64,000 nucleotides of DNA from Actinomycetes bacterium (GTDB lineage Bacteria; Actinomycetota; Acidimicrobiia; Acidimicrobiales; Ilumatobacteraceae). Position 1 is the stretch's first letter. Each line of letters opens with the position of its first letter. Where the stretch lies: NCBI GenBank assembly GCA_021414085.1, contig JAIOPC010000007.1, forward strand, positions 62,001-126,000, in the 5' to 3' direction. The translations under genes and the position numbers were made by a program. Shown here piece after piece: positions 2,890 to 28,522 of this stretch. Under the pieces are notes generated by a model that was given only the letters and a program-made list of their open reading frames with translations, had not been told where the DNA came from and did not search any database.

Positions 2890-4148
2890 CCCTTTAGTTT
2901 GACAGTGTCGAGGTACAGCCCGGTAAGGAACATGAACGCGAGCAGAGCGATACAGATCGCGGCAACGGGCATCAGCTTGTTGACGTCGGCGTAGTAGCGC
3001 TTGCCGCGGCGCGATCGGATGCGCTCGTACGTAGCGATCGCCGCATGGCCACCATCGAGCGGCAGCAGCGGGAACATGTTGAACACGCCAACTGAGATGT
3101 TGACGACGGCGACCAAATACAGCATTCCCGCCCAGCCGTCGAATCTGCCGATGTCGTCGCTGATGCGCGTGGCCCCGACAATGGTTCCCGGCCGCGAGCT
3201 CACATCGTCGTTGGAGCCAGTGAGGTGGCCCAGCACGTTCACCGGGTTGATGACCTTGGCTACCCCGACGATCGCTTGGCCGACACCGGTAAGTAGATCC
3301 CTCGGACCTTCGGTCAGTGAGTCCACGATCCCTTGTGGCACGTAATCGCGAGAGTTGGGCGTGACACCAAGAAAGCCGGTCTCTTCGGTGCGGTTCGGAT
3401 TCTGAATCAGGGTGGCCGTGATCACGAGCGGTTGTCCGTCGCGTTCAATACCAAACGTCAGCGTTGTTCCGGGTGCCGAGCCAGCCAACAGCTCACGGAG
3501 ACCATCGGCCGAGACAACGGGCTCGCCATCGACGGTGCGCACCTCATCGTCCTCGCGCAAACCGGCAAGCTGTGCCGGCGTATCGGCACCCACGGAGAAG
3601 AGGGTGACCTTGCCCACTTCTTCAACCCGGCCGAACGTCGCATACAACCCGACCACCATCGCCAGCGCGATGATCATGTGCATCGCCGATCCCGCCGTAA
3701 TCACCCACATGCGCCGGGCGTACGTTCCCTGTCGATACGTGAAGGGCTCGTCCTCGGCAGCAACCTCGTCGACGTTGGTCATGCCGATGATCTTCACGAA
3801 GCCACCCAACGGGATCGCGCGCAATCCGTACTCGACGCCACCGCGGTGAACACTCCACACACGCGGCCCGAAACCGAGGAAGAACTGCGTTGCTTTCATT
3901 CCACTACGCCGGGCCGTCCAGAAGTGACCGAGCTCGTGCAACATGATGGAGATGATCAGGCCAACGACGAACACAAGCGACCACGGACTATTGAACGCCA
4001 GGAAAGTGAAGAGCCCGACCCATGCGAGCAATCCGATAATCATCGTCTCGCGATCGGCCTTCTCTGGCGCCGCCGCGGATTGCGTGCCGCCGGAGACGAC
4101 TTCGACCTTCATGCGCTCGAGACGACTGGGCCGCGTGTCGGTGCTCAT
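2886..4148 (-). CDS. rseP: Site-2 protease family zinc metalloprotease (RseP/Rip1-like)
   Basis: This intramembrane zinc protease has 420 residues and in actinobacteria cleaves anti-sigma factors and other membrane proteins (Rip1 in mycobacteria). The first membrane segment runs into the metal motif HELGH near residue 69. A PDZ-like domain is marked by AGLREDDEVRTVDGEPV, and the third zinc ligand region is NMFPLLPLDGGH. I chose the ATG at 4148 (MSTDTRPSRLERMK) because further upstream the frame would run through the end of dxr. The open frame continues upstream but that part is a shadow of dxr. It sits 46 bp downstream of dxr and overlaps ispG. A possible target is the single-span anti-sigma factor encoded at 10.1 kb; this is inference only. 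Confidence 0.93.
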   Translation of the reverse strand: MSTDTRPSRLERMKVEVVSGGTQSAAAPEKADRETMIIGLLAWVGLFTFLAFNSPWSLVFVVGLIISIMLHELGHFWTARRSGMKATQFFLGFGPRVWSVHRGGVEYGLRAIPLGGFVKIIGMTNVDEVAAEDEPFTYRQGTYARRMWVITAGSAMHMIIALAMVVGLYATFGRVEEVGKVTLFSVGADTPAQLAGLREDDEVRTVDGEPVVSADGLRELLAGSAPGTTLTFGIERDGQPLVITATLIQNPNRTEETGFLGVTPNSRDYVPQGIVDSLTEGPRDLLTGVGQAIVGVAKVINPVNVLGHLTGSNDDVSSRPGTIVGATRISDDIGRFDGWAGMLYLVAVVNISVGVFNMFPLLPLDGGHAAIATYERIRSRRGKRYYADVNKLMPVAAICIALLAFMFLTGLYLDTVKLKG

Positions 4149-14646: not shown

Positions 14647-15786
14647 TCATCGGAACGGGGAACCCGTCCGCTCGAACCATCCGTCGGCCTGTGCAACCCA
14701 GCCGTTTGCCTCCAACCGCGCCAAGCACATGGCTGCGTCGACCAAGCTGAGACCTGCCAACAGAGCAACGCCATCAATCGTTCGCGCATCGTCGGCGATG
14801 ACTCGGTACACGGCGAGATCGACGCCCCGCGGGCGCGGACGTAGGTCGGCGGCCATCACAGCGGAGCGGTCGTTTTGGTACGAGAGCGCGATCAGAACGT
14901 CGTCGACGCCCAAGACCGGCGTTGCGCCGTCGCAAATCAGCCGGTTGGTGCCAGCGGACGACCGCCGATCGACAGGTCCCGGCACTGCCATCACCGGGAT
15001 TGAGCGATCGATCGCTTCGCTGGCGGTGATCAGCGAACCACCGCGCTCGCGTGATTCGACAACGATCACCAACTCCGAAAGTGCGGCCACGATGCGGTTG
15101 CGCAACGGAAAGCGATGAGCTTCGGGCGGGGTGCCGGGCGGCGATTCGCTGAGCAGCAGACCCGACTCGCCCACCGCTGCCCAGAGATCCGCATGCTCGC
15201 GGGGGTAGATCACGTCGTGCCCGCTGGCAACGATGGCAATCGGTCTGCCCACGCTGTCGCTGTCGGTGGCCGCCGCGAGCACGCCGCGATGGGCGTAGCC
15301 GTCAACACCGCGCGCGAGTCCGGACAGCACGTGGACGCCAGCGGCGGCAAGCCCGTGGCCGAGCAACCGGGCAGTAGCCCGGCCCGCTGCCGTCGCGTTG
15401 CGCGTGCCGACAATGCCCACTCGGCGACCCTCCAGCAGCGCGAGATCGCCACGCGCAAACAACACCGGCGGCGGTAGGCGATCGTCGAGCAGACCAGCCG
15501 GGTAGCGCGGATGGCCCAGCACCAGCACCTCTAACCCAAGGTCGCCGCACTGCTGCCAAACGCGTTCGGGCGGCCGCTCGGCCGCGCAGCGCCGCCAACT
15601 CGCGCGAACCGGCGGGTTTGCGGCCAGCACCTGGGCGATCAAACCGACTGCCGGGTGTTCCCCCAGCACCACTGCCCACGCTTCTTCCGGCTCGTGGTGG
15701 CGCAGCAGCGCGGACAAGCGGTGGATGTTCATGTTGCGGAAGCCAGCGAGCGCGGCGACGTACGCATGCGGTGGCAGATCTGTCAT
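14647..15786 (-). CDS. dprA: DNA-processing protein DprA
   Basis: DprA (Smf) binds incoming single-stranded DNA and loads RecA during natural transformation. The 379-residue protein has an N-terminal helical segment, then the Rossmann-like core with [34 protein letters not shown] and the later SGHDVIYP and [12 protein letters not shown]-terminal winged-helix-like domain (about residues 310-379) follows. Its ATG overlaps the comM stop (ATGA at 15783-15786), so comM and dprA are coupled. Confidence 0.95.
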
Positions 15787-17252
15787 GCCACACGCTCACG
15801 CGACGACACACTGAGCCGCACTCGCAGGTTCAGCGCAACGACAACGTGTTCATCGAGCACCAAGTCGTGTTCACCCTGCAGATCAGCAATGGTGCGCGCG
15901 ACGCGGCGAATGCGGTGGTAGCCGCGGCCGGTGAGCAGGTCGCGCTCCAGTTGAGTGCGCAGCCGAGCACGCGCGGCCGGATGCAGCGGCGCGAGTTCGT
16001 CGAGACGATCAGGCGGGATGTTCGCGTTCAGTGTTCCTGCTCGATCCATTGCAAGCGCGCGGGCATTCGCAACGCGCGCGGCAACCAGCACGGTCGGTTC
16101 GCCGCCGCCGCTCGCCAGCAAGTCGTCGACGTCGGGTCGTGCGACACCGACGCGCAAATCGAAGCGATCGAGCAACGGGCCCGACAATCTGCGCAGGTAG
16201 CGCAACCGAGCAACCTCGTCGCATTCGCACGTTCCGGGTGGGCCACCACCGCATGGGCACGGATTTGTCGCGGCGACGAGTAGGAACTTGGCCGGCAGCG
16301 CGGCCGACGCCCGTGCGCGTGCGAGGCGAATGACGCCCTCTTCCAACGGTTGCCGCATGCCATCGAGCACCACTGGGCCGAACTCGCCAAGTTCATCGAG
16401 AAACAGCACGCCACCATGGGCGAGCGAAATCTCGCCCGGGCGCAAACCCACGCTGCCACCACCGACGAGCGCAACCATCGAGCTGCTGTGATGTGGCGCT
16501 CGAAACGGCGCGCGGCGCACCATGCCACCCAAGGGCAAGCGCACACCTGCGGCCGAGTGAATCATCGTCGCCGCCAACGAGACCTCGGGAGTGAGTTGCG
16601 GCAGCAACCCGGGAATGCGTTGCGCCAACATCGTCTTGCCGGAGCCGGGCGGGCCAACGAGCAGAAGGTGATGAGCACCCGCGGCCGCAACCTCAAGCCC
16701 AAGGCGCGCCGCTGCCTGCCCGCGCACATCGGCCAGGTCGGGCGGCGGTGGTTCATCGTCGACGAACTCGCCCGCGGGCGGCCGCGGCCACGGTGCCTCC
16801 GCGTTGAGTGCATCGACCACTTCGCGCAAACTGCCGGCAACGCGAACACGTTCGCCGTTCACACCCTGTGCTTCGCGGAAACTCGCGACGGGCACCACGG
16901 CGACTACGTCTGGCATCGCGGCAACCATTGGTGCCACCCCGGAGACCGCGCGCAGGCTGCCATCGAGCCCCAGCTCAGCAAGGAACCCGAAGCCTTCCAA
17001 CTGCTCGACCGGCAGCTGTCCGTTCGCCGCCAGCAACCCAACCGCGATCGCGAGGTCGAGCCCTGACCCACCCTTGCGTTGGCTGGACGGCGCAAGGTTG
17101 ACGACGATCTTGCAGTTGGGCCATTGGAGTCCGCACGAAAGCAGCGCGGCTCGCACGCGATCTCGGGACTCGCGACACGCGGCATCGGGGAGGCCCACGA
17201 TCAAGAAGCCCGGCAGTCCGGTGGACGCAACATACAGGCGCGTCAACGGCAC
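15783..17252 (-). CDS. comM: ComM-like AAA+ ATPase lacking the normal N-terminus
   Basis: ComM (YifB/MgsA family) is a helicase that extends D-loops during natural transformation. The 489-residue product has the Lon-like N-domain (GLPGFLIVGLPDAACRESRD), then the ATPase with Walker A GPPGSGKTM, Walker B VLFLDELGEF and the C-terminal domain. The usual first part, about 15-20 residues ahead of GLPGF, is absent: only VPLTRLYVAST precedes it and an in-frame TGA lies three codons before the GTG start. The break coincides with the edge of the secreted-protein island, and the 5' end of this gene is duplicated at 23.9 kb. The protein may be impaired. Confidence 0.88.
   Translation of the reverse strand: MPLTRLYVASTGLPGFLIVGLPDAACRESRDRVRAALLSCGLQWPNCKIVVNLAPSSQRKGGSGLDLAIAVGLLAANGQLPVEQLEGFGFLAELGLDGSLRAVSGVAPMVAAMPDVVAVVPVASFREAQGVNGERVRVAGSLREVVDALNAEAPWPRPPAGEFVDDEPPPPDLADVRGQAAARLGLEVAAAGAHHLLLVGPPGSGKTMLAQRIPGLLPQLTPEVSLAATMIHSAAGVRLPLGGMVRRAPFRAPHHSSSMVALVGGGSVGLRPGEISLAHGGVLFLDELGEFGPVVLDGMRQPLEEGVIRLARARASAALPAKFLLVAATNPCPCGGGPPGTCECDEVARLRYLRRLSGPLLDRFDLRVGVARPDVDDLLASGGGEPTVLVAARVANARALAMDRAGTLNANIPPDRLDELAPLHPAARARLRTQLERDLLTGRGYHRIRRVARTIADLQGEHDLVLDEHVVVALNLRVRLSVSSRERVA
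17086..17227. repeat. 142-bp perfect duplication, copy A (5' part of comM)
   Basis: These bases are identical, base for base, to 23943-24084, in the same orientation and offset by 6857 bp. The segment codes for the start of ComM up to NLAPSS. On the comM 5' side both copies stop matching at the same place, just before the GLPGF motif. Together the copies bracket two secreted-protein genes. Confidence 0.95.
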
Positions 17253-17302
17253 GCAACCTCAGTCGTCACGAATTCGGCCCGGGCGTGCCCGACTGGGCGT
17301 CG

Positions 17303-20300
17303 TTATGTCCCTTGGAAGTAACCCGAGACGTCGACCAGCAGGTCGGTGGCCGCGAAACTGAACAGGCAGACCTTGCCGCCGGCACCGACACGGGAGATGA
17401 CCGAGTTGGGGATCGTTTGGCCAGCCGCGTAGTTGAGACTCGACGCATTCGGCAACGGCTCCCCGCACGGATAGACCGTGACGAAGCCGCCATCTAACGG
17501 CGACACGACCGTCACGTTCAACACCACCGACGCCGCGGTGGCGGGGACACCCGCACGACCGGCAACCGGTAACTCATACGTGCCGCCAGTCGCGATCCGG
17601 CCCACTGCTTGGTGCAACCCGTCGACGGTTGTGCCGCCAGGATTGCGGGTGTCCAACACGCGACCTGGCGCTCCCAATGGTGCGTACGAATCGACCGTTG
17701 AGAAGTAGCCGGAGACGTCGACGAGTAGGTCGGTGGCGGCGTGGCTGAAGAGGCAGATTTTGCCGTTAGCGCCGACGCGGGTGATGACCGAGTTGGGGAT
17801 TGTTTGACCGGCTGCGTAGTTGAGGTTGGAGGCGTTTGGTAACGGTTCGCCACAGGGGTAGACGGTGACGAACCCGCCGTCTGAGGGTGACACAACGGTC
17901 ACGTTCAACACGACCGACGCAGCATTCGCGGGGACACCCGCACGACCAGCAACCGGCAACTCATACGTGCCACCAGCCGCGAGACGACCCACCGCCTGAT
18001 GCAACCCATCCACCGTCGCGCCGCCCGGCGACCGTGAGTCCAACACCCGACCAGGCGCACCCAACGGCACCAACGAATCGACCGTCAAGAGACCGGCCGC
18101 CTCTGCCATCTCGGTCGTGAGTTCATCAACGTACGTAACTGCGGGTTGGGTTTGATCGCCCAATGCGCCAATCCCACCGCCAGCGAAAACCAGATGAGCC
18201 CAATCATCATGACCAACCAGCAACGCGCGAGTAGGCGTATTACCCGGTTGGCTGCTTGACTGCTTGATCGTAGCCCCGATTCTTCCCGCGTCGATTGAAC
18301 CGTTGCAGTTCCAATCAATAGCGCCTGCCGCTGCGACCAGTTGAATGCGGTGCTCCTCGCCGCCGCAGAAGTAACCCGTGTAGAAGCCACTTTGTTGAGG
18401 TGTCAATCCGTCGATCTCAGATAAAGACGCTTCATCCAGCGATGTGAGCTTCTCGCGCGAGTAGTCAAGCGGTCGATTTGAACTCTGCAACAGACCGGTC
18501 AGTTGAAACGTGTAATTCATCACGCTGAGGTAGTTCGGCTTCCAGGTGATGCCATCCGCGCCACCGTGAGCCAATCCGAGGGTGTGCCCGAGCTCGTGCA
18601 TGAACGTGCCCGACTCCCCTGTCGGCGTAGAAGTGCTGGGGAAGTCCGCAACCATGAAGTCAGCACCCCGTGCGACGCCTGTGGGCGATCCGAAACGGTT
18701 ACTGAAAAGCGAGTATCGGAACACGTCACGACGCGCAGGATCAAAATGCGCTGCCTTTAGGGTGTCGAACTCGCCCCAACTGTATTGCCCCGGTCCAAGC
18801 CAAACCCCGAGAACGTCGTCGAAAGGAACCTGATTCGCCCCTGACGTGTCACCCCACGTTTCGTTCGTCCGAAGGTCTCGTATGTAGTCAGCTCCAGCAT
18901 CGAGATGCAGTCTGATACCCGATGAACCATCGGGGTTCGCCACCGGCGCATCGGCAAACGCCTTGACAACCCGGTCCATCGCCAGGCGCTGTGGCTCATG
19001 ACCAGGCATCCAGTCAACCTCCACAAACAGGTCCTTGTGATTCGGATCAGCCCCGAGCCCCGGAAGATCAAGATCGATAGTGCCATCCGAGTCAAAGTCA
19101 ACCCCGCTGACCTCCCAGTCGTCAGGAAGCCCGTCACCGTCAGAATCACAAAGCTCCACAGCACCCGGCAACATAACCCCGGTCATCACTTGCGTCGGTG
19201 TCGGGTGCGCGGTGCCGGCGCCGTTGTAGTTGTAGGTGACCCTCCCTAACTGCCCATACGAGTTGAGGCCGAAAGTCCACAATGTGCCGTCCGTCTTCAA
19301 CACCAAGCTATGGTCGCTACCAGCGGCGATCGCGGCTACTTCGCTCATCACTTGGGTCGGTGTCGGATTCGTGGTGTAGGTGCCGCTGTTGGTGACCGTG
19401 CCCAACTCTCCGGAATGGTTGTTGCCGAAACTCCACAATGTGCCATCGGACTTCAACACCAAACTGTGATCGCCGCCAGCGGCAATCGCAGCTACGTCGC
19501 TCATCACTTGGGTCGGTGTCGGATTCCTTACGTACGTGCCGAGGTTGGCGACCGTGCCCAACTGCCCGAAGGAGTTCACGCCGAAGGTCCACAATGTGCC
19601 ATCGGACTTCAACACCAAACTGTGGTCGTCGCCAGCGGCGATTGCAGCTACTTCGCTCATCACTTGGGTCGGTGTCGGATTGGGGTTCCCCCCTGGGATG
19701 CCCCAGTCCCTCCCCAACTGCCCGTACTGGTTGGAGCCGAAGGTCCACAATGTGCCATCCGTCTTCAACACCAAACTGTGGTCATCGCCGCCTGCGATTG
19801 CAGCTACTCCGCTCATCACTTGGGTCGGTGTCGGATTCGCCGCCGTGATGATGTCCCTACCCAACTTCCCATACCGCTCTTGCCCGAAGGTCCATAGTGT
19901 GCCATCGGTCTTCAACACCAAACTGTGAAGGGTGCCGACGGCGACTACGGCCACTTCGCTCATCACTTGGGTCGGTGTCGGATTCAGAGTGCCGCTGCTG
20001 TGAATGTTGTCCTTCCCCAACTGTCCGTCATAGTTGTGGCCGAAAGTCCACAATGTGCCATCCGTCTTCAACACCAAACTATGATGGCTTCCGGCCGCGA
20101 CCGTGGCTACTTCGGTCATCACTTCGGCCGGTGTTGGATTCGGAGTGAAGGTGCCGCTGTTAGTAAGCGTGCCCAACTGCCCAGACGAATTCAGGCCGAA
20201 AGACCACATCGTGCCATCGGATTTCAGAACCAGACTGTGGTAGCCGCCTGCGGAGATCGTCGTGCGGGGCGCCCCAACAGCCGCAAACGCAGGTGTCACA

Positions 20301-20401
20301 GATTCCACGCCAGCTAGCAGCGCTCCGAAAAGTGTCAAGACAGCGACAATTCCATTGATTGCTGCCCCACCAGTCAGACGACGCCCCTCCCGGCCGCTCA
20401 T
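17303..20401 (-). CDS. Secreted RCC1-repeat metzincin protease with two C-terminal two-Cys modules
   Basis: This exported protein has 1032 residues and a signal peptide (hydrophobic residues 14-40, ending PAFA). Seven RCC1-type repeats follow (about 45-400), each with HSLVLK(S/T)DGT(M/L)W(S/T)FG, enough for a full propeller. A calcium-type segment DSDGDGLPDDWE comes next. Then comes a zinc protease domain with the metzincin motif HELGHTLGLAH (about 600-610) and a Met-turn SVMNY. The tail (about 775-1032) holds two copies of a 125-residue module running from LGAPGRVLD(S/T)R to VDVSGYF, with one Cys in VYPCGEP and one in GK(I/V)CLF. The ATG at 20401 follows GGGAG. The physiological substrate is unknown; matrix or surface protein degradation is inference. 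Confidence 0.85.
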   Translation of the reverse strand: MSGREGRRLTGGAAINGIVAVLTLFGALLAGVESVTPAFAAVGAPRTTISAGGYHSLVLKSDGTMWSFGLNSSGQLGTLTNSGTFTPNPTPAEVMTEVATVAAGSHHSLVLKTDGTLWTFGHNYDGQLGKDNIHSSGTLNPTPTQVMSEVAVVAVGTLHSLVLKTDGTLWTFGQERYGKLGRDIITAANPTPTQVMSGVAAIAGGDDHSLVLKTDGTLWTFGSNQYGQLGRDWGIPGGNPNPTPTQVMSEVAAIAAGDDHSLVLKSDGTLWTFGVNSFGQLGTVANLGTYVRNPTPTQVMSDVAAIAAGGDHSLVLKSDGTLWSFGNNHSGELGTVTNSGTYTTNPTPTQVMSEVAAIAAGSDHSLVLKTDGTLWTFGLNSYGQLGRVTYNYNGAGTAHPTPTQVMTGVMLPGAVELCDSDGDGLPDDWEVSGVDFDSDGTIDLDLPGLGADPNHKDLFVEVDWMPGHEPQRLAMDRVVKAFADAPVANPDGSSGIRLHLDAGADYIRDLRTNETWGDTSGANQVPFDDVLGVWLGPGQYSWGEFDTLKAAHFDPARRDVFRYSLFSNRFGSPTGVARGADFMVADFPSTSTPTGESGTFMHELGHTLGLAHGGADGITWKPNYLSVMNYTFQLTGLLQSSNRPLDYSREKLTSLDEASLSEIDGLTPQQSGFYTGYFCGGEEHRIQLVAAAGAIDWNCNGSIDAGRIGATIKQSSSQPGNTPTRALLVGHDDWAHLVFAGGGIGALGDQTQPAVTYVDELTTEMAEAAGLLTVDSLVPLGAPGRVLDSRSPGGATVDGLHQAVGRLAAGGTYELPVAGRAGVPANAASVVLNVTVVSPSDGGFVTVYPCGEPLPNASNLNYAAGQTIPNSVITRVGANGKICLFSHAATDLLVDVSGYFSTVDSYAPLGAPGRVLDTRNPGGTTVDGLHQAVGRIATGGTYELPVAGRAGVPATAASVVLNVTVVSPLDGGFVTVYPCGEPLPNASSLNYAAGQTIPNSVISRVGAGGKVCLFSFAATDLLVDVSGYFQGT
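17306..18078 (-). repeat. Two tandem copies of the C-terminal two-Cys module (gene 1)
   Basis: Two direct repeats of about 390 bp encode the module ending VDVSGYF. They are closely related to the three copies at 20511-21670 and more distantly to the two at 25562-26289. The 3' flank after the stop, including an inverted repeat around CGGGCGTGCCCG, is also shared with the next gene. Confidence 0.8.
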
Positions 20402-20507
20402 TGTCGCTCCCTACTTCCTAAGTCTGGATGGCTCATCAACCTCTCTCACACACCCGGCACTCCTCAGTCGTCACGGATTCGGCCCGGGCGTGCCCGGCTG
20501 CGCGTCG
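20402..20507. other. Intergenic stretch with duplicated 3' tail
   Basis: The stretch 20462-20507 matches 17258-17302 with few differences, including a hairpin CCGGG-CGTG-CCCGG near 20483-20497. So the two secreted-protein genes share not only their final module but also their 3' flank, as expected if module plus tail were copied as a unit. The hairpin lacks a T-run, so a terminator role is unproven. Confidence 0.55.
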
Positions 20508-23500
20508 CTAGGAGCCTTGGAAGTAGCCGGAGACGTCGACCAGTAGGTCAGCGGCCTCGGAACTGAACAGGCAAATCTTGCCGCCGGTGCCGACTCGGGC
20601 GATGACCGAGTTGGGGATTGTTTGGCCAGCCGCGAAGTTGAGGTTGGACGCGTTCGGTAACGGCTCCCCACACGGATACACCGTCACGAACCCGCCTTCT
20701 GAAGGTGACACGACGGTGACGTTCAAGACCACCGACGCAGCGTTCGAGGGCACACCGGCACGGCCAGCGACCGGCAATTGATAGGTTCCACCAGCCGTGA
20801 TTCGACCGACCGCTTGGAAGAACCCGTCGATGGTGGTTCCGCCCGGGAATCGGGTATCCATCAGCCGTCCGGGTGCCGCTAACGGGACAAAGAAGTCGCT
20901 GGTCAAGAAGTAGCCAGCGACATCGACCAGGAGATCGGTGGCAGCCGAACTGAACAAACAAACCTTGCCGCCAGCACCGCCACGGGCGATGACCGAGTTG
21001 GGGATTGTTTGGCCATCCGCGAAGTTGAGATTCGACGCGTTCGGCAACGGCTCGCCACAGGGATAGACACTCACAAACCCGGCCTCGGACGGTGACACCA
21101 CGGTGACGTTCAACACCACCGACGCCGCATTCGCGGGCACACCGGCACGACCAGCAACGGGCAACTCGTAGGTTCCACCGGCCGCGATTCGACCCACAGC
21201 CTGATGCAACCCATCAATGGTGGTGCCACCAGGATTACGGCTGTCCAACACCCGACCCGGTGCCCCCAACGGCACCAACGCATCACTCGTCAAAAAGAAG
21301 GCGGCAACATCCACGAGGAGATCGGTGGCAGCCGAACTGAACAAACAAACCTTGCCGCCTGCTCCGACACGAGTCAGTACCGAGTTGGGGATCGTTTGAC
21401 CGGCCGCGAAGTTGAGGTTCGACGCGTTCGGTAACGGCTCGCCACAGGGATAGACGGTGACGAATCCGCCGTCTGAGGGTGACACGACGGTGACGTTCAA
21501 CACCACCGACGCAGCGTTCGATGGCACACCGGAACGACCGGCAACAGGTAACTCATAGGTAGCGCCGGCTGCGATCCGACCCACCGCCTGATGCAATCCA
21601 TCAACTGTTGTGCCGCCCGGGTTGCGGGTGTCCAATACCCGACCGGGTGCCCCCAATGGCACCAACGCCGGCTGCATCACACCTACCGACTCGACCTTAC
21701 GAATCGCCCCTATCGTTGAGATATACAGATTTCCGGCAGCATCGAACGCAAGTTGGTATGGCTCGTTGAGAGAAGCGCTGGTCGCCGGACCGCCATCGCC
21801 ATCGTTTTCAACAAACCCGTCACCGGCGACGGTCGTCACTATTCCAAAGGTGTTGATTCGTCGGACTCGGATGGAGTCGGAGAAGAACAAATTGCCTGCC
21901 TTATCAGTCAAAAGGTCACCGATGAGGTTGAGACAGGCGTTTGCGGCTGGCCCGCCGTCGCCAGATGAATCGCCCCCAGGACAGCCTGTTTTGCCAGCGA
22001 TGCGCACTGGGGCACCGCCACCCACAGGAATCTTGATGATACCGCTGTCGCCAAAGCCGTTATCGACAGAGTTGTAGAGTGAACCGTCCGGTGCCACCGC
22101 CAACTGGCCTTCCCACTGAGGGGCGTTTGCACCCGCGCAGGTCCCACCATAGAACACCGATTCGACTCCGCCAGGTGTCCGCTTATAGATCTTACAATCA
22201 GGATAATTGAAGCCGTCGAAGTAGTAGAGGTTCCCAAGGCGGTCATACACCGGACTCTCCGGGTAATATCCAATCGACGAGGTTGTCGCTGAACCTGACC
22301 CAGTGATCAACGTATGACTACCCGTGAAGTTGCCATACACATCGACGTCTCCCGCGGGCGTACGAGCCATTGTGTATTCGCCTCGCGTGTCGAGTGTCAG
22401 GCCGGGACTCCCCGATAATTGCATCCACGGTGGAGTCAGTAGACGAGAAGACCCGGCCACTGCCAGCGGTGGCGCCGATGGGGCACTTTGAAGAGCTCCG
22501 CCGCCCAGCACGGTGTCAATGGTGCCCCCGACCGTGAACCGGCGCATCACACTGCGGTAAAGGCCTTCACTGTCGAAGCTCTGCTCGCTGGTTAGAACGG
22601 AACCGTCAGATAACACCCCGACGACGGTTACCCCGAACTCCCCTAACTTGGCGGCCAACGCAGCACCGCCGTCACCGTCACCGATCTCACCGCCAACGCC
22701 CGTCCCGGCGACCGTCGTTACCGTTCCACCAGGAGCAATCTTCTTCACCACGTACAGCGGCGAACCAAATACTTCTTCCTCGGTGAAATAGATCGAGCCA
22801 TCTGAAGCGGCCGCCAGACTGGTGACATACCGACCGGCCGTCGGTGTATAGCGGGTGGTGATTGTGTTATCGGACTCCAACCGGCGAATGGTGCCCGAGG
22901 GCTCACTCGCCGGGTCTCCCTGGTAGTTGATGAATACCAATCGACCGGAACCGTCAACATCAAGATCGTGAGCGTCAACCTGCGCTGCCGTGGCGAGCCC
23001 AGTATCTCCGGTGTCGCCCAGGGTTCCGTTACCGGCCACGGTCGTTATCGTTCCACTGGCGATCTTTCTAATTCGGCCGTACTCGGCAATAAACCCGACA
23101 CCACCCGCCGCTGCGACGCCATCGTACGCCGAAATCTGTGCGGCTGTAGCAGCGCCTCCATCACCAGAAGAACCACAAACCCCGGTACCCGCAATTGAAC
23201 TGCTGCCCGAACCGTCGGCTAGAGCCAAGAGGATCTGGCACCCATCGTAACTGAAGGTGATCGATCCATCCGGTCGAACATTGATCGCCGAATACTGGTC
23301 CGGCGCTGCAAGAATTGAGCTGATATTGGCGCCCACCGCAGCCTTGCCGATACCGAATTCGTAGAGGTTGACATACAACGCATCTGAGCTGTCGTGACCG
23401 ATGTAGAGGTTGTTGAAATCTGCTTGCAGCGCCGTCAACGGTTGCCCAATCGGCGAAATCTGCGTGGCCACAGTCGTAATCGTCCCCGCGGCTGCCGACA

Positions 23501-23639
23501 CCTCACCGGACCACGACGACGTGAAACCGACAACTGCCGCCAACAACACGACAACAAGGCCTACGTCACCTCGTGAACGGCGACCACTGGCTTTGCCGGC
23601 ACTCGAACCAACAGACACCCGAGACTCACAACGATCCAT
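20508..23639 (-). CDS. Secreted NHL-like beta-propeller protein with three C-terminal two-Cys modules
   Basis: This exported protein has 1043 residues. The signal peptide is hydrophobic at about 26-50. A long region of NHL/propeller-type repeats runs to about residue 655, with repeated elements such as ITTVAGNGTLGDTGDTG, GDGGPATSASLNEPYQLAFD and AGNLYIS. Three copies of the shared module follow (about 658-785, 786-914 and 915-1043), each with LGAPGRVLD(S/T)R or LAAPGRLMDTR, VVLNVTVVSPS, VYPCGEPLPNASNLNF and a second Cys in GK(I/V)CLFS. No catalytic motif is seen; a binding or adhesive role is inferred. The ATG at 23639 follows a G-rich ribosome-binding site. Confidence 0.82.
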   Translation of the reverse strand: MDRCESRVSVGSSAGKASGRRSRGDVGLVVVLLAAVVGFTSSWSGEVSAAAGTITTVATQISPIGQPLTALQADFNNLYIGHDSSDALYVNLYEFGIGKAAVGANISSILAAPDQYSAINVRPDGSITFSYDGCQILLALADGSGSSSIAGTGVCGSSGDGGAATAAQISAYDGVAAAGGVGFIAEYGRIRKIASGTITTVAGNGTLGDTGDTGLATAAQVDAHDLDVDGSGRLVFINYQGDPASEPSGTIRRLESDNTITTRYTPTAGRYVTSLAAASDGSIYFTEEEVFGSPLYVVKKIAPGGTVTTVAGTGVGGEIGDGDGGAALAAKLGEFGVTVVGVLSDGSVLTSEQSFDSEGLYRSVMRRFTVGGTIDTVLGGGALQSAPSAPPLAVAGSSRLLTPPWMQLSGSPGLTLDTRGEYTMARTPAGDVDVYGNFTGSHTLITGSGSATTSSIGYYPESPVYDRLGNLYYFDGFNYPDCKIYKRTPGGVESVFYGGTCAGANAPQWEGQLAVAPDGSLYNSVDNGFGDSGIIKIPVGGGAPVRIAGKTGCPGGDSSGDGGPAANACLNLIGDLLTDKAGNLFFSDSIRVRRINTFGIVTTVAGDGFVENDGDGGPATSASLNEPYQLAFDAAGNLYISTIGAIRKVESVGVMQPALVPLGAPGRVLDTRNPGGTTVDGLHQAVGRIAAGATYELPVAGRSGVPSNAASVVLNVTVVSPSDGGFVTVYPCGEPLPNASNLNFAAGQTIPNSVLTRVGAGGKVCLFSSAATDLLVDVAAFFLTSDALVPLGAPGRVLDSRNPGGTTIDGLHQAVGRIAAGGTYELPVAGRAGVPANAASVVLNVTVVSPSEAGFVSVYPCGEPLPNASNLNFADGQTIPNSVIARGGAGGKVCLFSSAATDLLVDVAGYFLTSDFFVPLAAPGRLMDTRFPGGTTIDGFFQAVGRITAGGTYQLPVAGRAGVPSNAASVVLNVTVVSPSEGGFVTVYPCGEPLPNASNLNFAAGQTIPNSVIARVGTGGKICLFSSEAADLLVDVSGYFQGS
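20511..21670 (-). repeat. Three tandem copies of the C-terminal two-Cys module (gene 2)
   Basis: Three direct repeats of about 385-390 bp with long near-identical DNA stretches occur here, in the same family as the repeats at 17306-18078. The copy number differs between neighbouring genes (two versus three), which suggests unequal recombination. Confidence 0.8.
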
Positions 23640-24217
23640 GATGGCGATCCCCCCAGATCACTGAGCCCGATCCGTCCAACCGGGCAGCTTTGTAACCCAC
23701 CTTCTATCACAAAACTACTATCAGGATTCACAACCGCTCTTTCGCCACTCGGTGGTCCACGCCGAACTAACCCGACCGCCCGGGCAGAAGCGCGCAACCC
23801 GGGTGGTGCGGGCGACTCTGCTCCCTCGACGACAATGTCATCGAAACTCTCCGATGCTCGGCCTCGCCGACGGAGATCCAGGTTCTTAGCAAGACTGGGA
23901 CTGACGGACCTGAAACGAACCGCCCTTTATCTAGTCAGACTCGACGGCGCAAGGTTGACGACGATCTTGCAGTTGGGCCATTGGAGTCCGCACGAAAGCA
24001 GCGCGGCTCGCACGCGATCTCGGGACTCGCGACACGCGGCATCGGGGAGGCCCACGATCAAGAAGCCCGGCAGTCCGGTGGACGGCAACGCGCCGATCCA
24101 CAACACGCGCGTCGAATGGACGTGTGACGGTACGGGAAGGTGCAGGCCTTCACCTTTCCAGTCGCCACCTGGTTCCAATATCGTCTGAGTCGCCGCCCGC
24201 GCAGTAGAAAGGACCGC
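23640..24217. other. Non-coding 578-bp stretch between divergent secreted-protein genes
   Basis: The stretch contains the 142-bp comM duplication (23943-24084) and otherwise no credible gene. It should also hold the divergent promoters for the genes starting at 23639 (minus) and 24218 (plus), but I see no clear promoter motif. A long minus-strand frame crossing it is an artefact of the repeat gene opposite. Confidence 0.6.
23943..24084. repeat. comM: 142-bp perfect duplication, copy B (comM 5' fragment)
   Basis: This is identical to 17086-17227. Read on the minus strand it encodes STGLPGFLIVGLPDAACRES and onward to NLAPSS, then leaves comM. Neither flank resembles the missing comM N-terminus. 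It is a dead fragment. Confidence 0.93.
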
Positions 24218-26290
24218 ATGAGCCACCCAGGAGTCGCGTTGAGCACCCGCAGAGGTCGTAGTGCAGTATCCCGACGCAGCGGGTGGTCGAGCGCGTTGCT
24301 TGTGTTGCTGATCGGCGGTTGGGTAACAGCACCCACCGCCGACGCTGCTGACGGCGATTTCGTGTGGGCCGTCCAACTCGGCGGCGCGACCGGCGCCGCA
24401 CTTAGCCGTTCGGTGGCGGTGGATGCCGACAGCAACGTCTACACCACCGGCACCTTCAACGGAACGGCAGATTTCGATCCTGGGGCAGGCGTCGACAACC
24501 TGACGTCGGCCGGCAACAACGATGTGTTCGTTTCCAAACTGGATGCTGACGGCGATTTCGTTTGGGCCCGTCAAATCGGCGGCACCAACGGCGACGAGGG
24601 CTATTCGGTGGCGGTGGATGCTGACGGCAACGTCTACACCACCGGCTGGTTCTCCGGAACGACAGATTTCGATCCTGGGGCAGGCGTCTTCAACCTGACG
24701 TCGGTCGCCAGCACCGATGTGTTCATTTCCAAACTGGATGCTGACGGCGATTTCGTTTGGGCACGCCAATTCGGCACCGCCCAGAGTGATGTTGGCTATT
24801 CGGTGGCGGTGGATGCTGACGGCAACGTCTACACCACCGGCCTCTTCGCCGGAACGGCAGATTTCGATCCTGGGGCAGGCGTCTTCAACCTGACGTCGGC
24901 CGGCATCTTTGATGTGTTCGTTTCCAAACTGGACACCAACGGCGATTTCGTGTGGGCCCGCCAAATCGGCAGCACCTCCAGCGATATTGGCCGTTCGGTG
25001 GCGGTGGATGCTGACGGCAACGTCTACACCACCGGCTACTTCGCCGAAACGGCAGATTTCGATCCTGGGGCAGGCGTCTTCAACCTGACGTCGGCCGGCA
25101 TCGTCGACGTGTTCGTTTCCAAACTGGACACCAACGGCGATTTCGTGTGGGCCCGCCACATCGGCGGCACCAACGGCGATTTTGGCGTTTCGGGGGCGGT
25201 GGATGCTGACGGCAACGTGTACACCACCGGCCTCTTCAGCGGAACGGCCGATTTCGATCCTGGGGCAGGCGTCGACAACCTGACGTCGGCCGGCGACAAC
25301 GATGTGTTCGTTTCCAAACTGGACACCAACGGCGATTTCGTGTGGGTCCACCAACTCGGCGGCACCGACGTCGACGAGGGCTATTCGGTGGCGGTGGATG
25401 CTGACAGCAACGTCTACACCACCGGCCGTTTCTCCGGGACGGCAGATTTCGATCCTGGTGTGGGCGTCCTCAACCTGACGTCGATCGGCTTCATCGATGG
25501 GTTCGTTTCCAAACTGGCAGGTGAGCCGGTCGGGTACATGCCGTTCGTGCCGACTCGCTTGATGGATACACGCCTGGGTGGCTCGACGGTCGATGGACAG
25601 TTCCAAGCAACCGGGGCACGCGCCGCCGGATCAACCACCGAGCTACAGATCAGCGGCCGCTCCGGTATCCCCGCCGACACGAAAGCCGTCGTGTTAAACG
25701 TCACCGCTACCCGCGCCACCGGCAACGGGTTCATCACCGTCTACCCCTGCGGAGCGACACCACCCAACACCTCCAACCTCAACTTCGTCGCTGGTGACAC
25801 GATCCCCAACCTGGTCATCGTCCCAGTCGGCATCGCCGGCAAAATCTGCGTCTACACCTCCGCCGCCACCGACCTCATCGTCGACGTCAACGGCTACTAC
25901 CCCGCCGGTTCCGACTACACACCGACCACGGCTGGCCGGTTGATGGATACACGCCTGGGTGCCTCGACGGTCGATGGACAGTTCCAAGCAACCGGGGCAC
26001 GCGCCGCCGGATCAACCACCGAGCTACAGATCAGCGGTCGCTCCGGTATCCCCGCCGACACGAAAGCCGTCGTGTTAAACGTCACTGCTACCCGCGCCAC
26101 CGGCAACGGATTCACCACCGTCTACCCCTGCGGAGCGACACCACCCAACACCTCCAACCTCAACTTCGTCGCCGGTGACACGATCCCCAACCTGGTCATC
26201 ATCCCAGTCGGCACCGCCGGCAAAATCTGCCTCTACACATCCGCCGCCACCGACCTCATCGTCGACGTCAACGGCTACTACCCCGCCTAA
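24218..26290 (+). CDS. Secreted SBBP-like repeat protein with two C-terminal two-Cys modules
   Basis: This exported protein has 690 residues. The chosen ATG at 24218 is preceded by AAAGGA and gives a signal peptide (WSSALLVLLIGGWVTAPTA, cleavage near DAA). Six 65-residue repeats follow, each with GDFVWARQIGG, SVAVDAD(G/S)NVYTTG, FDPGAGV and NLTS, typical of beta-propeller SBBP proteins. Two copies of a module related to that of the preceding two genes come next, with RLMDTRLG, VVLNVTATRATGNGF, VYPCGATPPNTSNLNF and a second Cys in GKIC(V/L)YTS, ending VDVNGYYPA. A GTG 26 codons upstream is possible but spoils the signal peptide. Function is unknown; surface binding is inferred. Confidence 0.85.
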   Translation: MSHPGVALSTRRGRSAVSRRSGWSSALLVLLIGGWVTAPTADAADGDFVWAVQLGGATGAALSRSVAVDADSNVYTTGTFNGTADFDPGAGVDNLTSAGNNDVFVSKLDADGDFVWARQIGGTNGDEGYSVAVDADGNVYTTGWFSGTTDFDPGAGVFNLTSVASTDVFISKLDADGDFVWARQFGTAQSDVGYSVAVDADGNVYTTGLFAGTADFDPGAGVFNLTSAGIFDVFVSKLDTNGDFVWARQIGSTSSDIGRSVAVDADGNVYTTGYFAETADFDPGAGVFNLTSAGIVDVFVSKLDTNGDFVWARHIGGTNGDFGVSGAVDADGNVYTTGLFSGTADFDPGAGVDNLTSAGDNDVFVSKLDTNGDFVWVHQLGGTDVDEGYSVAVDADSNVYTTGRFSGTADFDPGVGVLNLTSIGFIDGFVSKLAGEPVGYMPFVPTRLMDTRLGGSTVDGQFQATGARAAGSTTELQISGRSGIPADTKAVVLNVTATRATGNGFITVYPCGATPPNTSNLNFVAGDTIPNLVIVPVGIAGKICVYTSAATDLIVDVNGYYPAGSDYTPTTAGRLMDTRLGASTVDGQFQATGARAAGSTTELQISGRSGIPADTKAVVLNVTATRATGNGFTTVYPCGATPPNTSNLNFVAGDTIPNLVIIPVGTAGKICLYTSAATDLIVDVNGYYPA
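24351..25525 (+). repeat. Six tandem 195-bp repeats (65-residue SBBP units)
   Basis: Copies start near 24353, 24551, 24746, 24941, 25136 and 25331, with a constant 195-bp spacing after the first unit. Sequence is almost identical between copies, for example the run encoding VAVDADGNVYTTG. It lies in frame within the secreted protein gene. Confidence 0.9.
25562..26289 (+). repeat. Two tandem copies of the C-terminal two-Cys module (gene 3), 381-bp offset
   Basis: The copies start at 25562 and 25943 and are almost identical at DNA level through the VDVNGYYPA end. They are homologous to, but clearly diverged from, the modules of the two upstream genes. Confidence 0.88.
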
Positions 26291-26325
26291 ACCGAACCCC
26301 CACAACTGTCGCTGCCGGACTTGAT

Positions 26326-28017
26326 CTACGGCGTACCTTCGCCGTCGCCGCCATTCCCGCCTCGTCCACGTGAAGGGCGGCCTGGCCGTGGTCGCCGACC
26401 CGATCCGTTCGGACGCGGCGGACGGGGTGTCGTCGGCACATCGGCCGGCGGTGCCGCGCTCAGCGTCGCCAATGCAGACAGCGACGGTTGAAAGAAGTAG
26501 CCGCCGCCCGTCGTGGTGACGAAACGTTGCATGAGCGCGACGTGCCCGGTGCGGCCACCGGGCAGCGAGAACTCGCCGGTCTTGGGCGCCGTTGCGATGA
26601 TTGCGTCTTGGCCCGCATTGGGTTCAGGGAATGTTGGGTCGTTCACCCATTGCTGCTGCACGTGTTCGAACTGGCGAGCGATCGAAGTCTGGTAGCAGAG
26701 AAAGAGCAAGCCGCGATCGTTCGGAAACTCAGCGAGGGCAGCAGCACTGTCGGGAGTCGCGTCGGCTGCGAGCGAAGCACCAAATGGAATTCCACGCCGC
26801 AGCACACGATGTCGTTGGGTGTCTGCCTCACCACCGTCGTCGGTCGGATGATCGCGTGGGTAGGTCTTGCGGATGTGCGCGGCAAGCGGAACAAGGTCGC
26901 CGTTGAGGTCGCCGTCGTCAACAAACTCGAAGTCGTTGATTTGCTCGTCGCTGAGCAACGCCGGATTGGTGAGACCAGGGTCTGTGTCTTGCTCGCCGGT
27001 GAGCGCGAGCGGCGCACCGCTCTTGTAGCGACCGACGATCTTCGCTCCGGCGAGGTCTTCGCTGAGTCCCTGGTCCTTCGCGACCGATCGAATGAAGGCG
27101 CGAAAGCCAGCGACATCCTGACGCAATCTGCGGAACACCAAGTACGAACCGTTCTTCGTCCAGTCGGGGCCCGAAGTTGCGATCGGCCCCTGTACTTCCA
27201 CATCGGCACCCGGCCCCGCCTGCGACGGGTACCCGAGCACGAACTCGCCCGGCCACAACAAGTCTTGGCCGGGCGCACCCTGCTCGGCGTCGTCGGGATT
27301 CGCGGGCACCGTGAAGCCACGCACACCAGGTTGCGAGATGCCATCGCGGAAACCGAAGTGTTCATGGCCAGGCTCGTCGACTCGCGCGTCGCCGTACTCA
27401 ACGTGGCGCACCTCGACGCCATGTTGTGCGGCGAGTTGTTGATGCTGTTGCACCAACGACTGTCGATCGTCTGCTTGATCGGCCGCCACAATCACGACAG
27501 CGTGAAAGACCTGCTGCAATGGAGCTGGCCAGTTCTTCACGGCGTTCACGCCGAGATCGCCCACGGTGTTCGCTCGCTTTACCAGGCCCGCACGAAACTC
27601 AACCGGGAAGGTGGAGAGTTCCGAACGTGGCCGACCGAGCGCGATCAACCCAGGATGACTCAGCGCGATGTTGACCCACGAGGTGTTACTGAGGCCACTG
27701 CGAGCCGTCACCTCCCTGGCGGATGCGACGCTGCTTCTCACTGCCGCTAGCCACGCCCGCCCATCGCTGGAAGAGGGGAAGCCGACGAGAATGAGTGCTT
27801 GGTGATGGTTGTTGAATCCGGGCAGGACATTTCCTTGAATCTCATCAAGGTCGAGATCGACCGCGATGTCGGCCGTCAGTGGCCGGGCCGACTCTGCGGC
27901 CACGAGGTGAGGGAACGCCACCGTTGATGCGGCAGCGCCGCCGAGACCGGCGAGAAACTTTCGCCGAGCGAGGACTGGTTTGGTCTGGTCGTGATCGGAG
28001 TTCGTCGTTTCGGTCAT
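26326..28017 (-). CDS. DyP-type haem peroxidase with Tat signal
   Basis: This is a 563-residue dye-decolorizing peroxidase. The N-terminus carries a twin-arginine signal (ARRKFLAGLGGAAAS), so it is probably exported folded with its haem. The distal catalytic motif GFRDGISQPG (the GxxDG box) is clear, and the C-terminal half contains LFLCYQTSIARQFEHVQQQW, typical of Tat-exported EfeB-like DyPs. The last 35 residues are a Pro/Arg/Gly-rich low-complexity tail. No iron-uptake efeU or efeO genes flank it. DyPs oxidise phenolics and dyes with peroxide, and EfeB has been linked to haem iron release; which applies here is open. Confidence 0.92.
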   Translation of the reverse strand: MTETTNSDHDQTKPVLARRKFLAGLGGAAASTVAFPHLVAAESARPLTADIAVDLDLDEIQGNVLPGFNNHHQALILVGFPSSSDGRAWLAAVRSSVASAREVTARSGLSNTSWVNIALSHPGLIALGRPRSELSTFPVEFRAGLVKRANTVGDLGVNAVKNWPAPLQQVFHAVVIVAADQADDRQSLVQQHQQLAAQHGVEVRHVEYGDARVDEPGHEHFGFRDGISQPGVRGFTVPANPDDAEQGAPGQDLLWPGEFVLGYPSQAGPGADVEVQGPIATSGPDWTKNGSYLVFRRLRQDVAGFRAFIRSVAKDQGLSEDLAGAKIVGRYKSGAPLALTGEQDTDPGLTNPALLSDEQINDFEFVDDGDLNGDLVPLAAHIRKTYPRDHPTDDGGEADTQRHRVLRRGIPFGASLAADATPDSAAALAEFPNDRGLLFLCYQTSIARQFEHVQQQWVNDPTFPEPNAGQDAIIATAPKTGEFSLPGGRTGHVALMQRFVTTTGGGYFFQPSLSALATLSAAPPADVPTTPRPPRPNGSGRRPRPGRPSRGRGGNGGDGEGTP

Positions 28018-28132: not shown

Positions 28133-28522
28133 ATGCGGGTCGTGCGCCATCTTGTTGTCGTTGCCGCAGCGCTTGCTTCGGTCGGCGGGTGCGACGCCGA
28201 CGACCCACGCAGCGAGTCCGCGTATTGCGGCCAGATCGCTGAGCATCTGGAAGATCTCAACTCGCCCGTGATCGACACATCACTCGACGTCGGCCGCGTA
28301 CTCGCGGCCTGGCGCAGCGTCGCCAACGCGGCGCCGATCGCGATCGAGCCCGAATGGACCACGATGGTCGACGCGATGGAGACGGCAGTCACTGTCGACA
28401 CCGAAGACCCCGAGTCGATGCAGAAGGTCGCCGACACCGCCCGCGAGTCCGAACCGGCCGCGAAACGAGTGGTCAGTTACACCCAAGAACGCTGCGGGCT
28501 GACGATCGGCGTCGCGCCCTAA
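28133..28522 (+). CDS. Small putative lipoprotein, function unknown
   Basis: The protein has 129 residues. A positively charged start and hydrophobic stretch (MRVVRHLVVVAAALASVGGC) end in a plausible lipobox with Cys 20. The mature part is acidic and helical, with two further cysteines (in SAYCGQIAEHLEDL and in QERCGLTIG) that could form a disulfide. I do not recognise a family. It is divergent from the DyP gene and convergent with clpP, separated from the latter by a large inverted repeat. Confidence 0.65.
   Translation: MRVVRHLVVVAAALASVGGCDADDPRSESAYCGQIAEHLEDLNSPVIDTSLDVGRVLAAWRSVANAAPIAIEPEWTTMVDAMETAVTVDTEDPESMQKVADTARESEPAAKRVVSYTQERCGLTIGVAP

What the first reader, a model, noticed from the sequence alone, without database searches (positions are those of the whole stretch)
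17303..26290. Island of three head-swapped secreted proteins sharing one C-terminal module (seven copies)
Three adjacent genes encode large exported proteins with quite different heads: seven RCC1 repeats plus a metzincin protease (HELGHTLGLAH with Met-turn SVMNY); an NHL-like propeller; six SBBP-like 65-residue repeats. All end in two or three copies of one 125-residue module (D(T/S)R near the start, VVLNVT, VYPCG..P, GK(I/V)C, VDV.GY(F/Y)) with one conserved Cys pair. Modules of this general type (DTR, VVLNVT, SNLN, DV.GYF) occur at the ends of many secreted actinobacterial proteins but have no proven role that I know. Clustering, varied copy number and a shared 3' flank suggest an actively recombining cell-surface display cassette: interchangeable heads on a common anchor or binding tail.
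Basis: partly seen in the sequence, partly recalled or inferred. Interest (0 to 1): 0.75.

Follow-up and report, generated by a model that had tools for sequence, protein, structure and literature searches.

The report
Three-in-one knob tail, swappable heads
Three neighbouring genes of an environmental actinobacterium make exported proteins with different working ends but the same tail, and in the genomes examined that tail comes almost always in threes or ones, as if three copies fold into one three-sided knob that other proteins build from three separate chains.

Summary
In detail: three genes, three unrelated heads, seven copies of one ~125-residue module not covered by a Pfam or NCBIfam model. 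The interpretation needs changing. Copy number is not loosely variable: in single-contig genome G048 (same family) the 122 matches found form 37 triplets and 11 singles, no pairs; G076, G143 and G257 add 14 triplets, 3 singles and 1 pair; the window's own genome has 14 triplets, 4 singles and 2 pairs (the window's outer two genes). AlphaFold2 folds the triplet as one compact all-beta body (pLDDT 92.9, pTM 0.91). Its nearest solved folds include a trimeric Bdellovibrio fibre tip and engineered single-chain C1q and BAFF trimers. Several single-module proteins carry collagen, heptad or fibre-like stretches. I conclude that the tail is most likely a natural single-chain trimer, used as an interchangeable binding or anchoring knob. 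The three-fold geometry and the binding role are inferred, not shown. The island is a species-specific insertion that removed about the first 24 codons of comM, with a 145-bp comM fragment duplicated. Synonymous divergence argues against recent module exchange between the first two genes.

The parts
15783..17252 (-). comM (Mg-chelatase/ChlI-type ATPase), 5'-truncated: lacks about the first 24 codons that congeners have
   Evidence: Pfam ChlI + Mg_chelatase; N-termini of 10 congeners begin MLAAVRS or similar, 24 residues before the shared STGLPGF
17083..17227 (.). 145-bp direct repeat, copy A (inside comM)
   Evidence: 99% identical to copy B; alignment to 8 congeners' comM stops at base 142-144 of the repeat for both copies
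17257..17302 (-). 3' flank of gene 1, 93% identical to the 3' flank of gene 2
17303..20401 (-). gene 1: exported protein, RCC1 propeller + zinc-protease-like stretch + two modules
17306..17683 (-). gene 1 module 2
17690..18070 (-). gene 1 module 1
20462..20507 (-). 3' flank of gene 2
20508..23639 (-). gene 2: exported protein, NHL-type propeller head + three modules
20511..21671 (-). gene 2 triple tail, modelled by AlphaFold2 (modules at 21282-21662, 20895-21275, 20511-20888)
   Evidence: pLDDT 92.9, pTM 0.91; coordinates
23940..24084 (.). 145-bp direct repeat, copy B (detached comM fragment between genes 2 and 3)
24218..26290 (+). gene 3: exported protein, SBBP propeller head (repeats 24351-25517) + two modules (ORF opens at 24140; ATG 24218 more likely)
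25535..25912 (+). gene 3 module 1, near-identical to module 2
25916..26287 (+). gene 3 module 2
26326..28017 (-). Dyp-type peroxidase with a Tat-type signal (by eye), part of the same inserted stretch
   Evidence: Pfam Dyp_perox_C, DyP_N; one match in 14 congeners, 35% identity
28133..28522 (+). small lipoprotein-like gene (by eye; no Pfam match) that adjoins comM in congeners: far edge of the insertion

Best explanation
The shared module is a beta-sandwich domain, resembling C1q/TNF-type heads and the Bd2133 fibre tip, whose working state is a trimer. Three tandem copies fold together as one single-chain pseudo-trimer, a knob, fused to interchangeable exported heads. Proteins with one module are expected to reach the same trimer by associating three chains. 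The knob most likely binds a glycan or other envelope or matrix surface and so holds the different heads at the cell surface. Shown here: the modules, the three-or-one pattern, the compact predicted fold, its structural neighbours, stalk-like stretches on several single-module proteins, and the insertion at comM. Inferred: the three-fold arrangement (coordinates could not be inspected), the homotrimer of single-module forms, and the binding role. In this window the genes sit in a ~10.9-kb species-specific insertion (about 17228 to about 28130) that removed the 5' end of comM. Genes 1 and 2 lie between two copies of a 145-bp comM fragment, as single-crossover integration of a circle, or a long target duplication, would leave them. 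Gene 3's two near-identical copies may be a collapsed or contracted triplet; gene 1, with two divergent modules, is a true exception.
For: Copy number: G048 (1 contig) 37 triplets, 11 singles, 0 pairs among 122 matches (the same numbers on the translated proteins; 18 of 168 first-look candidates were not scored); G076 6 triplets, 3 singles; G143 5 triplets, 1 pair; G257 3 triplets (counted by hand from its 47 rows); own genome 14 triplets, 4 singles, 2 pairs, 2 ORFs cut by contig ends; contig collection 18 triplets, 2 singles, 0 pairs from 13 of 19 loci, 6 loci and one partial ORF dropped as cut by contig or locus ends or without a usable ORF. Fold: triple tail pLDDT 92.9, pTM 0.91, about six residues between the last strand of one module and the first of the next. 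Neighbours: Foldseek PDB best 5hkj single-chain C1q head, E 7e-6; BFVD best a BclA-C-terminal protein, E 3e-7, TMq 0.50; VIA best Bd2133 fibre tip Z 9.4 (103 aligned, 2.5 A), single-chain C1q Z 7.7 (202 aligned, 5.1 A), single-chain APRIL-BAFF-BAFF Z 7.0 (201 aligned, 5.3 A). The Bd2133 tip is a trimeric beta-sandwich (PMC10769870, passages); gC1q termini meet at the trimer base so that 3-residue linkers join monomers (PMC4774423, passages). Stalk-like devices beside the module: 5 of 16 singles against 2 of 69 triplets by a crude script, Fisher p 0.002, the two triplet cases being in signal-peptide-like stretches. G076, looked at afterwards: 2 of 3 singles carry long Gly-X-Y repeats. One G257 protein repeats stalk + module three times in one chain (stalk repeats ~41% identical).
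Against: Z 7-9 is only modestly above background; PNGase F, not a homotrimer of this kind as far as I recall, scores 7.8-8.0. TM-scores to single-chain C1q are low (0.24), and the next Foldseek matches are a glucosyltransferase and Vip3A; the BFVD list includes many viral capsid polyproteins, so part of the signal is a generic jelly roll. The Bd2133 paper calls that tip a previously uncharacterised fold, separate from the TNF-like tips of other MAT proteins, so likeness to Bd2133 and to C1q/TNF are two different resemblances. No sequence-level match to C1q, TNF, BclA or Bd2133. Two of the window's three proteins have two modules, and G143 has one more (modules 94% identical in DNA). 11 of 16 singles show no stalk by the script, and Pfam names collagen in only 1 of 17 singles scanned. 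Wall-type heads are a minority: SpoIID, CAP and M15 in 3 of 14 triplet proteins of this genome; in G048 SpoIID, CAP, Sortase and PG_binding_1 each in 1 of 36 scanned. Nothing tests ligand binding. The two-module tail of gene 1 was modelled only moderately (pLDDT ~80, thin alignment).
Confidence: 0.62

Rival explanations
1. Three copies by descent only: one ancestral three-module tail was copied onto many heads, and the modules act as independent beads on a string.
For: Nearest modules in other proteins match in position more often than chance: 97 of 207, binomial p 6e-5, so tails are partly inherited as a unit.
Against: 87 of 207 modules are closest to a sister in their own protein, so copies turn over and yet the number stays three; singles and the spaced triplet of G257; high pTM for the whole tail.
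Confidence: 0.2
2. One reading: a locus where modules and heads recombine actively and copy number varies.
For: Island absent from the 10 of 10 congeners whose interval was fetched; protease-like head at best 41% identical in 1 of 14 congeners, NHL head only partial matches in 4 of 14; shared tail + 3' flank of genes 1 and 2; near-identical modules in gene 3.
Against: Strong synonymous divergence between modules of genes 1 and 2; copy-number pattern; clustering not significant in G048 (5 gaps under 5 kb against 2.3 expected, P 0.08).
Confidence: 0.15
3. The tail is a C-terminal sorting or secretion signal, comparable in use to type IX secretion tails.
For: C-terminal (end within about 25 residues of the stop) in 12 of 14 triplets of this genome and 27 of 37 of G048 (counted by hand from the coordinates).
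Against: N-terminal or central in 2 of 14 and 10 of 37; N-terminal signal-peptide-like starts are seen by eye. No dedicated secretion machinery was looked for.
Confidence: 0.08

Closest known systems
Mosaic adhesive trimer (MAT) fibres of Bdellovibrio, Bd2133 tip (PMC10769870, passages seen)
   Same: Nearest solved fold (Z 9.4 and 9.2); adhesive fibre tips that are swapped in evolution; the Bd2133 tip is a beta-sandwich trimer
   Different: MAT tips are homotrimers on beta-helix fibres; here three copies are in one chain and the partners are propellers and enzymes; no sequence match
C1q/TNF superfamily heads, BclA C-terminal domain
   Same: Single-chain C1q is Foldseek's best PDB match; collagen-like stalks on some single-module proteins, as in C1q
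   Different: None of these Pfam families is listed for 16 tails
Engineered single-chain C1q globular head (PMC4774423, passages) and the mussel protein with three tandem C1q domains (PMC5519582, passages)
   Same: Three such domains in one chain; in the engineered form joined by 3-residue linkers
   Different: One is engineered, the other an animal immune protein (no trimer statement found in the passages); here a tail type on up to dozens of bacterial proteins per genome
AbaR islands in comM of Acinetobacter (PMC7508600, passages)
   Same: comM interrupted by an island; there this lowers natural transformation
   Different: No transposase gene among the likely genes here; insertion near the 5' end with a 145-bp duplicated fragment; effect on transformation not tested

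Membership tests
C1q / TNF / BclA-C families | Match to the family's sequence profile | tested here: not met
   16 tails against Pfam at E up to 0.1: none of these families among the 18 listed; none among the 11 NCBIfam families
C1q / TNF / BclA-C families | Jelly-roll fold | tested here: inconclusive
   Foldseek E 7e-6 to 5hkj; VIA Z 7.7 and 6.1 to C1q and BclA, in the range of common arrangements
C1q / TNF / BclA-C families | Trimer about a three-fold axis | tested here: inconclusive
   Copy pattern and pTM support it; coordinates not inspected, no experiment
MAT fibres | Trimeric beta-helix/prism stalk | tested here: not met
   Heads of triple-tail proteins named by Pfam are propellers, enzymes and other domains, the rest unassigned; fibre-like stalks only seen by eye in some single-module proteins (L197, L006)
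MAT fibres | Bd2133-type tip fold | tested here: inconclusive
   Z 9.4, 103 residues, 2.5 A; no sequence match
NCBIfam bluetail surface domain (NF041519) | Profile match above the curated cutoff | tested here: inconclusive
   5 of 16 tails match at E up to 0.1, best 8.5e-6; for the one tail shown in detail it is 14 residues and below the cutoff
comM-targeting AbaR-type islands | Transposase or integrase genes within the island | tested here: not met
   The likely genes between 17228 and 28130 are the three module genes and the Dyp peroxidase, which fill it but for gaps under 0.6 kb

The most novel reading that the evidence does not exclude
Acidimicrobiia and scattered other Actinobacteria (and two Chloroflexi bins) have turned a homotrimeric fibre-tip-like domain into a genetically encoded single-chain trimer. 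They use it as a general-purpose surface knob on up to dozens of unrelated exported proteins per genome, while keeping one-module forms that trimerise on collagen, coiled-coil or fibre stalks: a large, unnamed superfamily with a near-strict three-or-one rule.
Probability: 0.5. Interest if true: 0.75.

Novelty: new variant of a known kind. Interest (0 to 1): 0.6.

Why it matters
A module that no curated family model covers, found 122 times in one genome, gains a testable architecture: three copies in one chain equal one trimer. It would be a natural, genome-wide bacterial counterpart of the engineered single-chain C1q, and would give a handle on how understudied Acidimicrobiia hold enzymes and propellers on their surface.

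Tried and rejected
Rejected: module as part of the propeller (seen with many other heads). 3' flank as a structured RNA (fold z -0.8 and +0.3). Terminator: the scan of 17000-26400 gave 14 terminator-like sites against 8.2 +/- 3.0 expected, two weak overlapping ones just beyond gene 1's flank (17238-17255), none beyond gene 2's; 1 promoter-like site against 2.2; not pursued. A donor for the intergenic DNA elsewhere in the genome: none but the comM repeat. Phage origin of the tail: no match in 50,697 phage records by tblastn at E 1e-3. General clustering of module genes: not significant in G048.

Led nowhere: AlphaFold2 of the gene-1 protease-like domain + two modules (pLDDT 51.6); PDB sequence search with the module profile (one weak hit, an agarase domain, E 0.0012). 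Paper searches for the module motifs, for Acidimicrobiia surface or RCC1 proteins and for bacterial or tandem C1q trimers listed no paper that, by title and start of abstract, is about this module; that is a statement about these searches only.

Limits: one search scored at most 15 candidates per genome, so its 19 of 296 is a lower bound; the rows were truncated; one search scored 150 of 168 candidates. The heads of gene 2 and the peroxidase were compared only within the genus; the head of gene 3 was not searched in relatives. The stalk detector was ad hoc and missed fibre-like stalks; its 16 singles count one of two near-identical G048 neighbours once. The first modules of L057, L064 and L068 were matched only from model position 17-29 on and were counted as modules. 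Family and motif names for zinc proteases, Tat signals and lipoproteins are recalled, not from a call.

Full report
What is there. The three genes are as described: gene 1 (17303-20401, minus) with seven RCC1 stretches and a zinc-protease-like stretch, gene 2 (20508-23639, minus) with NHL-type repeats, gene 3 (24140-26290, plus; likelier start 24218) with SBBP repeats. They end in two, three and two copies of one module. No Pfam or NCBIfam model covers the module: 16 tails gave only short or below-cutoff hits, the most frequent being the NCBIfam bluetail surface domain (5 of 16 tails, best E 8.5e-6, 14 residues in the tail shown).

The locus. Genes 1 and 2 are flanked by a 145-bp direct repeat, 17083-17227 and 23940-24084, 99% identical, which is an internal piece of comM. 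comM (15783-17252) lacks about its first 24 codons: 10 congeners start MLAAVRS or similar 24 residues before the shared STGLPGF, and against eight congeners the alignment of both repeat copies stops at base 142-144. In the 10 of 10 congeners whose interval I fetched, comM adjoins the homologue of the lipoprotein-like gene 28133-28522, with a few hundred bases between; in G005 the gap is about 1.3 kb and holds another ORF of about 400 codons. No module gene was seen there. The closest relative's upstream sequence hit our genome exactly at that gene (window 28253-28402). So 17228 to about 28130 is an insertion that also holds a Dyp-type peroxidase (one 35% match in 14 congeners). Its heads are rare in relatives: the protease-like head matched 4 of 60 other genomes, in congeners only G002 at 41%; the NHL head only in part, in 4 of 14 congeners. 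No transposase or integrase is among its likely genes. A comM fragment on both sides of genes 1-2 fits single-crossover integration of a circle into a comM already cut by the gene-3 side, but a long target duplication would look the same.

How old are the copies. Gene 1 modules against gene 2 modules: 81-87% identical in protein, 52-56% at third codon positions; of codons for the same residue 55-58% are identical (58 to 63 of 102 to 110), against about 36% if codons were drawn at random, above every simulation. That is old divergence under strong purifying selection, not yet saturated and not recent exchange. Gene 3's two copies agree at 94% of bases over the whole module and 97% over the best 300.

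Three or one. Searching this genome gave 51 matches with one query and 57 with the profile. Of 22 ORFs 14 have three modules, 2 have two (genes 1 and 3), 4 have one and 2 are cut by contig ends. All 15 genomes of the genus that are held have it, 20 to 96 matches each. In G048, one contig, same family, 122 matches fall into 37 triplets and 11 singles, nothing else, confirmed on the proteins; 18 of 168 first-look candidates were not scored. G076: 6 triplets, 3 singles; G143: 5 triplets, 1 pair; G257: 3 triplets. The copies of G143's pair are 94% identical in DNA. The contig collection gave 18 triplets, 2 singles and no pair from 13 of 19 loci; one of the 18 (L004) is, by its numbers, the same DNA as a congener's contig. 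In a phylum sample 19 of 296 genomes had a match, a lower bound.

Fold. I wrote down the trimer idea before the model came (note). AlphaFold2 of the gene 2 tail with 46 tails gave pLDDT 92.9 and pTM 0.91, all beta, about six residues between modules. Best PDB matches: single-chain C1q (Foldseek E 7e-6, TM 0.24, followed by a glucosyltransferase and Vip3A) and by VIA the Bd2133 fibre tip (Z 9.4 and 9.2), PNGase F (8.0), single-chain C1q (7.7), single-chain APRIL-BAFF-BAFF (7.0). The best BFVD match is a BclA-type protein, TMq 0.50, in a list with many viral capsids. The Bd2133 tip is described as a trimeric beta-sandwich of a previously uncharacterised fold, apart from the TNF-like tips of its relatives (PMC10769870, passages); the C1q single chain works with 3-residue linkers since the termini meet at the base (PMC4774423, passages). 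Coordinates could not be inspected, so the three-fold axis is inferred.

Single-module forms. If the trimer is the working state, single-module proteins should carry trimer-forming partners. A crude script found Gly-X-Y runs, heptads or a fibre motif beside the module in 5 of 16 singles and 2 of 69 triplets, the latter in signal-peptide-like stretches (Fisher p 0.002). Pfam names collagen in 1 of 17 singles scanned; PHROGs gives tail-fibre matches for that one and for one other of 10 scanned. G076, looked at later, has long Gly-X-Y repeats in 2 of 3 singles. One G257 protein repeats stalk + module three times in a single chain (stalk repeats ~41% identical, E 4e-7 to 2e-11). Against: 11 of 16 singles showed nothing by the script.

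Function. Pfam heads of triplet and pair proteins in this genome: RCC1, NHL, SBBP, SpoIID, CAP, DUF1501, ice-binding, M15 peptidase, CHRD; five of 14 triplet proteins had none at E 1e-4. Elsewhere: subtilase, amidase with SLT, NosD, RCC1, and among 36 of the 37 G048 triplets (one of 4029 residues left out) fn3, PKD, RCC1, reprolysin, lipase, sortase and others, each in one to three. A common surface-binding knob is the simplest use of such a tail; the ligand is unknown and wall-type heads are a minority.

Evolution of tails. The nearest module in another protein sits at the same position in 97 of 207 cases (69 expected), so tails pass on partly as units, while 87 of 207 are closest to a sister copy in the same protein. 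Copies turn over but the number is kept, which favours a structural reason for three.

Verdict. Observation confirmed; the cassette reading partly supported; the better reading is a natural single-chain trimer tail on swappable heads, with the geometry unproven and the binding role open.

Noticed in passing
L116 and L117 (G014 contig C26, about 526032-566464): In a congener comM is split at about residue 280 by a ~40-kb insert with phage-type genes (minor tail, tail fibre, endolysin, ParB-like): comM is hit by at least two unrelated insertions in this genus.
   Followed up: partly
L244 1453-3909 (G257): A protein in which a fibre-like stalk plus module is repeated three times in one chain.
   Followed up: partly
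L053 5428-10601: Two adjacent genes with HExxHxxGxxH-type motifs and triple tails; a similar pair lies on contig L004 of a congener, so this locus may be stable (by eye).
   Followed up: no
L019 and L016: Five neighbouring (Asanoa) and three neighbouring (Micromonospora) ORFs with triple tails and similar heads.
   Followed up: no
upstream of comM in L073, L074, L079-L081 and others: A conserved stretch before comM in congeners (reads SGNRxPFPP in one frame), not seen in the window (by eye).
   Followed up: no
L115 about 2595-3880 (G005): An extra ORF of about 400 codons between comM and the lipoprotein-like gene in another congener: the same interval has taken up other DNA.
   Followed up: no
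window 26326-28017: A Dyp-type peroxidase with a Tat-type signal lies in the same insertion as the module genes.
   Followed up: partly
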